From contig JAISYZ010000204.1 in assembly GCA_031269545.1 (NCBI GenBank), positions 1 to 53,856 on the forward strand: a DNA stretch of 53,856 nt, in the 5' to 3' direction. Positions 45,751-45,931 of this stretch are shown here, one piece after another; the stretch's first letter is position 1; each line of letters opens with the position of its first letter. The notes under the pieces are model-generated. The model did not search any database. It saw only the letters and a list, made by a program, of their open reading frames with translations, and was not told where the DNA came from. Source of the stretch: Prevotellaceae bacterium. Its GTDB lineage: Bacteria; Bacteroidota; Bacteroidia; Bacteroidales; UBA932. The position numbers and the translations under genes were made by a program.

Positions 45751-45931
45751 TTTTGTGTCTTATAATTTATATTATAGGACAAATTTTTCTGCCTGCAAAG
45801 GTATATGATTATTTAATATCTGCAAATTGCATGCCTGTCAATAACTTGTTGGTAACCTGTTGATAAAAAATACAATCTATTGTTTTAGTGCGACTTACAT
45901 GCGCCTATAATATAAATTATAAGACAAAAAA
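45751..45931. promoter_or_regulatory. Candidate invertible promoter segment
   Basis: GTCTTATAATTTATATTATAGG at 45757-45778 and its exact reverse complement at 45904-45925 (27/28 when extended to 45751/45931) enclose a TTTG-N19-TACCTTTG promoter pointing at the SusC gene. Confidence 0.7.
45796..45803 (-). promoter_or_regulatory. -7 element TACCTTTG for the second SusC gene
   Basis: Reverse complement of caaaggta with a TTTG -33 box 19 nt upstream. Confidence 0.75.

What the first reader, a model, noticed from the sequence alone, without database searches (positions are those of the whole stretch)
45751..45931. Candidate invertible promoter controlling a SusC/SusD operon (phase switch)
GTCTTATAATTTATATTATAGG and its exact inverse lie 125 bp apart (27/28 when extended). 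Between them is a textbook promoter TTTG-N19-TACCTTTG facing the SusC gene (ATG at 45726), i.e. the assembled orientation reads ON. Each repeat is itself a dyad (CCTATAAT-ATAA-ATTATAAG), as expected for a site-specific recombinase site. Inversion would turn the promoter toward the + strand genes at 46382-53856 (nucleotidyltransferase and giant surface proteins), so one switch might alternate nutrient uptake and surface-protein expression. DNA inversion of promoters is established for surface loci in Bacteroides; this repeat sequence and the two-sided layout may be new.
Basis: partly seen in the sequence, partly recalled or inferred. Interest (0 to 1): 0.85.

Follow-up and report, generated by a model that had tools for sequence, protein, structure and literature searches.

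The report
Genome-wide family of flip-switch promoters
A short promoter in front of a nutrient-uptake gene sits between two mirror-image recombination sites and is one of about 25 such flippable promoters in this gut bacterium's genome, probably all flipped by one enzyme whose relatives normally shuffle DNA-modification genes.

Summary
A perfect 22-bp inverted repeat (45757-45778 / 45904-45925) encloses a Bacteroidetes promoter (TTTG-N19-TACCTTTG) aimed at a SusC gene 31 bp away. It is not a single case. The same paired site occurs about 25 times in this genome and 4-23 times in every genome held of the genus, but in none of 189 other genomes of the family. In-place inversion is strongly supported. 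Flanks keep a fixed frame while the interior points either way (19 ON, 18 OFF). The 6-bp spacer is identical within pairs, in inverted orientation, in 78 of 79. Orthologous SusC loci are ON in two species and OFF in two. The likely invertase is a 267-aa tyrosine recombinase at the ruvA-leuS locus. Its relatives outside the genus flank inverted hsdS genes, and the best-supported mirrored site there has the same ATAAT-N4-ATTAT core. The 'two-sided switch' idea is not supported. Multi-locus invertible SusC promoters are known in Bacteroides fragilis. New here are the site family, its genus-wide spread, and the apparent reuse of an hsdS-type invertase. Current flipping within cells and the enzyme assignment were not tested with reads or in the laboratory.

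The parts
45751..45778 (+). left inverted repeat (exact 22 nt 45757-45778); gene-side recombination site; dyad core ATAATTTATATTAT at 45762-45775
   Evidence: 47 genomic copies with <=3 mismatches
45904..45931 (-). right inverted repeat (exact 22 nt 45904-45925); distal recombination site; dyad core at 45907-45920
45779..45903 (.). invertible segment (125 bp) carrying the promoter
   Evidence: sequence; orientation varies among sister loci
45796..45803 (-). -7 box TACCTTTG, facing SusC
   Evidence: same position in sister elements
45823..45826 (-). -33 box TTTG, 19 bp from the -7 box
45952..45973 (.). conserved distal flank TTTTTTCGAAAAGTGTTAAAAA (AACACTTC motif family), outside the invertible segment, on the non-gene side; function unknown
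   Evidence: opposite the gene in 26 of 26 elements
42193..45726 (-). SusC/RagA TonB-dependent outer membrane receptor, controlled gene
40267..42174 (-). SusD/RagB partner lipoprotein, second gene of the operon
46354..46361 (+). candidate own -7 box (TACATTTG) of the divergent nucleotidyltransferase gene; argues against the two-sided switch
46382..47284 (+). divergent nucleotidyltransferase gene; neighbour, probably not part of the switch

Best explanation
This is a phase-variable (invertible) promoter. A tyrosine recombinase pairs the two inverted dyad sites, cuts within the 6-bp centre of each, and inverts the roughly 125-bp segment between them. In the drawn orientation the promoter transcribes susC/susD (ON). 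After inversion it fires away from the operon (OFF). The element belongs to a dispersed genus-wide family of such promoters, about 25 in this genome, many of them in front of SusC/SusD and other surface genes. All share one core site, so one enzyme acting in trans can flip them all, each independently. The most likely enzyme is the 267-aa tyrosine recombinase at G000:C163:57521-58321, next to leuS. [quoted passage not shown] here it appears alone, without hsdS. Shown from sequence: the paired sites, the promoters, both interior orientations in fixed flanks, matched spacers, genus restriction, and the same core site at mirrored positions in hsdS loci of the enzyme's relatives. Inferred: that flipping happens now, that this enzyme does it, and that OFF means little susC expression.
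For: (1) Family and not chance: 47 sites against 0 control in this genome; paired dyads in 11 of 11 genus genomes and 0 of 189 others of the family, control 0. (2) Promoter: a -7 box facing exactly one end in 68 of 80 elements, full -33/-7 in 60, against 0.8 expected in shuffles. (3) In-place inversion: flank clusters in G000 hold both interior orientations; the conserved distal flank is opposite the gene in 26 of 26 elements but upstream of the promoter in 23 and downstream in 28; 19 ON, 18 OFF. (4) Cross-species flips: a SusC 87-89% identical over its N-terminal 380 aa is ON in G000 and G010, OFF in G003 and G005. The window's SusC relatives are ON in G001, G003 and G010; the G004 locus (67%) reads OFF in the part held. 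(5) Spacer rule: the central 6 bp are identical within a pair in inverted orientation in 78 of 79, 0 direct; permutation mean 63, maximum 74 in 2000 permutations. (6) Enzyme: 267-aa orthologue in 8 of 11 genus genomes against 9 of 189 others; beside leuS and/or ruvA in five species; intact catalytic motifs aligned with XerC/XerA/XerD. (7) Relatives outside the genus are flanked by inverted hsdS genes; at mirrored positions ATAAT-N4-ATTAT is the top-ranked of 1024 possible 5-bp arms, in 14 of 25 loci, next best 5, and flank homology breaks at the dyad in several pairs. (8) Seven solo genus proteins form a clade (100/99) nested among hsdS-associated relatives.
Against: No reads were available, so the OFF orientation has not been seen at this locus in this genome. 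The window's closest SusC relatives (85-88%) are all ON. The 267-aa gene was not found in G004, G006 and G009, which carry the sites (genomes 69-83% complete). G003's copy is not firmly inside the solo clade, and G010 has a second copy of another lineage. Nine family genomes outside the genus have the enzyme but not the promoter elements, as expected if they shuffle hsdS, but hsdS was detected in the short flanks of only some of them. Another tyrosine recombinase (411 aa) is present intact in part of the genus and is not excluded. Elements in each genome are related to each other, so counts are not independent.
Confidence: 0.82

Rival explanations
1. The promoter inverts, but the invertase is the 411-aa tyrosine recombinase (G000:C8:9721-10953) or another recombinase, not the 267-aa protein.
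For: A 411-aa orthologue is found in 6 of 11 genus genomes (G000, G002, G003, G005, G006, G007); in the sampled elements the inner arm ending in GGAC or similar is common in G000, G002, G005, G006 and G007, all of which have it.
Against: No full-length copy in G001, G004, G009 and G010, and only a broken fragment in G008, although all carry paired sites; an intact relative in another genus (G018) has no such sites; its location varies between genomes and the HxxR motif reads YxxK (sequence). The hsdS site evidence points to the 267-aa family.
Confidence: 0.1
2. The elements are MITE- or REPIN-like repeats with terminal inverted repeats that spread by transposition; orientation relative to genes is fixed at insertion and they do not flip.
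For: Dispersed, about 155-170 bp, inverted ends, many copies, some far from any gene start.
Against: Flanks outside the repeats are conserved on both sides (SusC leader on one, AACACTTC motif on the other) while the interior is found in both orientations; orthologous loci differ in orientation; spacers are matched within pairs. No longer element with the same ends was noticed among the sites fetched, but a transposase was not searched for directly.
Confidence: 0.04
3. A two-sided switch: ON drives SusC/SusD, the other orientation drives the nucleotidyltransferase and the giant surface proteins.
For: The neighbouring + strand genes point away from the element, so transcription could reach them.
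Against: The nucleotidyltransferase has its own -7-like box 28 bp upstream; the flipped promoter would be about 460 bp away; in sister loci the distal gene is often convergent.
Confidence: 0.06
4. Relic: the elements flipped in the past but the system is now frozen in this lineage.
For: No read evidence; several degenerate elements (L018, L031); the closest relatives of the window locus are all ON.
Against: Arms at the window are perfect, spacers are matched in nearly all pairs, the recombinase keeps its catalytic motifs and, in five species, its genomic position.
Confidence: 0.08

Closest known systems
Tsr0667-controlled SusC/SusD invertible regions of Bacteroides fragilis (Nakayama-Imaohji 2009, described in PMC4747536)
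   Same: One trans-acting tyrosine recombinase, many dispersed regions, SusC/SusD surface receptors, simple promoter inversions among them.
   Different: Tsr0667 also makes shufflon-type inversions at three clusters (PMC4747536); here each element examined is a single promoter segment. The B. fragilis site consensus could not be checked (paper not held); from memory it differs. More elements per genome here, and a different kind of enzyme family by context.
Mpi invertible capsule promoters of B. fragilis (PMC4747536)
   Same: A master invertase flipping 13 dispersed regions, seven of them capsule promoters; Bacteroides -7 consensus TAnnTTTG.
   Different: Mpi is a serine recombinase acting largely on capsule loci; here the site geometry (6-bp matched centre, dyad arms) fits a tyrosine recombinase, and only a fragment of a serine recombinase domain was found.
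Tyrosine invertases that shuffle type I R-M hsdS genes (for example PsrA of Streptococcus pneumoniae, PMC4948785, PMC7096588; survey PMC7394358)
   Same: The 267-aa protein's relatives lie between inverted hsdS genes, and their mirrored sites have the same ATAAT-N4-ATTAT core.
   Different: In this genus the gene stands alone, and its presumed sites flank promoters rather than hsdS segments.
Invertons of gut Bacteroidales found by PhaseFinder-type surveys (for example PMC11892184)
   Same: IR-flanked promoter segments near TonB/SusD genes with the Bacteroidota promoter motif.
   Different: Those were detected from reads in human-gut strains; this family is inferred from assemblies of a different genus, with a distinct repeat.

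Membership tests
Invertible promoter (inverton) | promoter segment bounded by short inverted repeats next to a gene start | tested here: met
Invertible promoter (inverton) | both orientations occur | tested here: met
   among paralogous and orthologous loci; not shown within one population
Invertible promoter (inverton) | inverted-junction reads in a population | not testable with these tools
   no reads held
Invertible promoter (inverton) | gene expression depends on orientation | not testable with these tools
   no RNA data
Tsr0667-type SusC/SusD system | many regions sharing one site, SusC/SusD targets | tested here: met
Tsr0667-type SusC/SusD system | Tsr0667 orthologue and its site consensus | not tested
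   reference paper not held; enzyme sequence not compared
Tsr0667-type SusC/SusD system | shufflon-type multi-gene inversions | tested here: not met
   complete elements examined are single pairs of about 155-170 bp
Mpi system | serine recombinase invertase | tested here: inconclusive
   one partial PF00239 match at a contig end; site geometry suggests a tyrosine enzyme
hsdS-shuffling tyrosine invertase family | close sequence relationship of the recombinase | tested here: met
   up to about 70% identity to hsdS-flanked proteins; tree
hsdS-shuffling tyrosine invertase family | ATAAT-N4-ATTAT crossover dyad | tested here: met
   14 of 25 loci, rank 1 of 1024 arms
hsdS-shuffling tyrosine invertase family | gene lies between inverted hsdS genes | tested here: not met
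   no hsdS motif beside the nine genus copies; the only PF01420 match in G000 is on another contig, without dyads
MITE/REPIN | flanks unrelated between copies, interior orientation fixed relative to flanks | tested here: not met

The most novel reading that the evidence does not exclude
In one genus of gut Bacteroidales, an invertase lineage that elsewhere shuffles restriction-modification specificity genes has been separated from hsdS and turned into a genome-wide master switch, with its recognition site now flanking about 4-25 promoters per genome, many of them of nutrient receptors and other surface genes.
Probability: 0.62. Interest if true: 0.75.

Novelty: new variant of a known kind. Interest (0 to 1): 0.62.

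Why it matters
It would add another route, besides Mpi and the Tsr enzymes of B. fragilis, by which Bacteroidales make surface receptors phase-variable. It links two switching systems usually treated apart (R-M specificity shuffling and promoter inversion) through one recognition core. It also gives a concrete, testable enzyme-site pair with many natural substrates per genome, and an evolutionary series (hsdS-linked to solo, species-specific arms) for studying how recombinase sites spread.

Tried and rejected
A serine recombinase as the invertase: only a partial PF00239 match at a contig end. The 411-aa recombinase was first favoured from the strict 22-bp pattern, but a wider core pattern showed sites in all 11 genus genomes, of which five lack a full-length copy. 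An inverted repeat beside the recombinase gene itself: none resembling the promoter sites was found. The MITE reading was rejected on flank evidence. The B. fragilis Tsr0667 paper is not held. In one search one element (L025) was wrongly turned by the script; one search uses a stricter rule and places it correctly. A paper first thought to show an hsdS invertase acting elsewhere does not.

Full report
Observation. The arms are identical over 22 nt and 27/28 when extended; the segment between is 125 bp; the promoter is TTTG-N19-TACCTTTG on the minus strand, facing SusC. The exact dyad core ATAATNTANATTAT occurs only twice in the window, once in each arm.

A family, not a single case. The 22-mer with up to 3 mismatches is found 47 times in the whole genome and never when read backwards. 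Reading those places gave 20 complete pairs of about 155-170 bp, a further pair cut at a contig start, three cut inside the element by contig ends, and two degenerate ones. A looser core pattern (two dyads 104-134 bp apart) is present as 4-23 pairs in all 11 genomes of the genus held and in none of 189 other genomes of the family, control 0. One genus member, G001, matches the public contig JAITLJ010000200.1 ('Prevotellaceae bacterium isolate Pcl387_bin97') in length and gene position.

What is inside. Of 80 elements read from nine genomes, 68 have a TANNTTTG box near exactly one end facing outwards, and 60 have the full -33/-7 arrangement at exactly one end; shuffled interiors give 0.8. The controlled side often carries, 30-50 bp outside the core, the ATG of a SusC or another exported protein.

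Evidence for inversion without reads. Four lines agree. First, in this genome the outside flanks fall into families that hold both interior orientations: the same SusC leader lies on the promoter side in L020 and L028 but on the far side in L026. Second, a conserved flank (TTTTAACACTTCTC-like) lies opposite the gene in 26 of 26 elements, yet it is upstream of the promoter in 23 and downstream in 28; overall 19 elements read ON and 18 OFF. The frame is fixed and the interior turns. Third, an orthologous SusC (87-89% over 380 aa) is ON in G000 and G010 and OFF in G003 and G005. The window's own SusC is ON here and in G001, G003 and G010 (85-88%); the G004 relative (67%) reads OFF, although its distal dyad was only partly inside the stretch checked. 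Fourth, the central 6 bp of the two arms are identical in inverted orientation in 78 of 79 pairs, although the centre differs between elements; partners shuffled within genomes match in 63 on average and 74 at most. This is expected of the overlap region in conservative site-specific recombination (general knowledge of tyrosine recombinases).

Which enzyme. Seven tyrosine recombinase genes match in this genome. Two are XerC/XerD-like and are found across the genus. A 411-aa protein is intact in only part of the genus. A 267-aa protein is present in 8 of 11 genus genomes (the three without it are 69-83% complete) and in 9 of 189 others, and lies beside leuS and/or ruvA in five species. Its relatives outside the genus are flanked by inverted type I specificity genes (PF01420). 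In those loci, among all 1024 possible 5-bp arms, ATAAT with a 4-bp spacer is the best supported at mirrored positions: 14 of 25 loci, next best 5. In several pairs, sequence similarity between the two hsdS copies starts or stops at this dyad. This is the same core as in the window. Seven genus proteins form one clade (100/99) within the hsdS-associated family; G003's copy is unresolved next to it and G010's second copy belongs elsewhere. No hsdS motif was seen beside the genus copies, and the one hsdS match of this genome lies on another contig without such dyads. The catalytic motifs (R in GARISELL, HSFRH, GHKS, Y in TTRIYL) align with XerC/XerA/XerD.

Working model. The solo 267-aa recombinase acts in trans on all elements. 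Each flips independently, giving a population in which different cells express different SusC/SusD systems. Paired sites, promoters, both orientations and matched spacers are shown. Present-day flipping, the enzyme-site pairing and the effect on expression are inferred.

Two-sided reading. The gene at 46382 has its own -7-like box 28 bp before its ATG, and distal genes of sister elements are not consistently arranged. I regard OFF as simply off for SusC.

Known or new. Multi-locus promoter inversion of SusC/SusD by one tyrosine recombinase is established in B. fragilis (Tsr0667; Mpi and Tsr19 are its other master invertases; PMC4747536), and hsdS shuffling by tyrosine invertases is also established (PMC4948785, PMC7096588, PMC7394358). 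The searches made found no paper joining the two, but the library lacks most subscription journals. I therefore call it a new variant of a known kind.

Noticed in passing
window 45952-45973; sister loci: A conserved AT-rich flank (TTTTAACACTTCTC-like) lies outside the invertible segment on the non-gene side, in 52 of 80 elements at 3 mismatches and always opposite the gene (26/26). Function unknown: accessory binding site, upstream promoter element or terminator are guesses.
   Followed up: partly
G000:C8:9721-10953 (L040:829-2064): A 411-aa tyrosine recombinase with HxxR changed to YxxK, patchy in the genus, a broken fragment in G008, intact in another genus (G018); own targets unknown.
   Followed up: partly
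L013, L017, L018, L022, L023, L024, L027, L031: Several elements in this genome have no obvious surface-gene start at either end or are cut by contig ends; contigs repeatedly break inside elements, as expected for repeats or mixed orientations.
   Followed up: no
window 3240-7791: A second SusC/SusD-like pair in the window has an ordinary promoter-like -7 box and no exact dyad core, so not every SusC operon has the switch.
   Followed up: partly
window 47294-50488 and 50531-53854: Two large open reading frames; the protein of the first has an IgGFc-binding domain and a CHU_C type IX secretion signal.
   Followed up: no
L184, L185, L186, L187, L188: Nearly identical relatives of the 267-aa recombinase with hsdS parts occur on short contigs binned as Riflebacteria, Gastranaerophilales and Alphaproteobacteria, suggesting transfer or mis-binning; three of the contigs end within the hsdS inverted repeats.
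   Followed up: no
G010 (L163, L222): One genus member has two 267-aa recombinases of different lineages and two types of inner repeat arm.
   Followed up: partly
G007 elements L262, L265-L269: Sites with a palindromic centre (ATAATATATATTAT), which would not by itself fix inversion over deletion.
   Followed up: no
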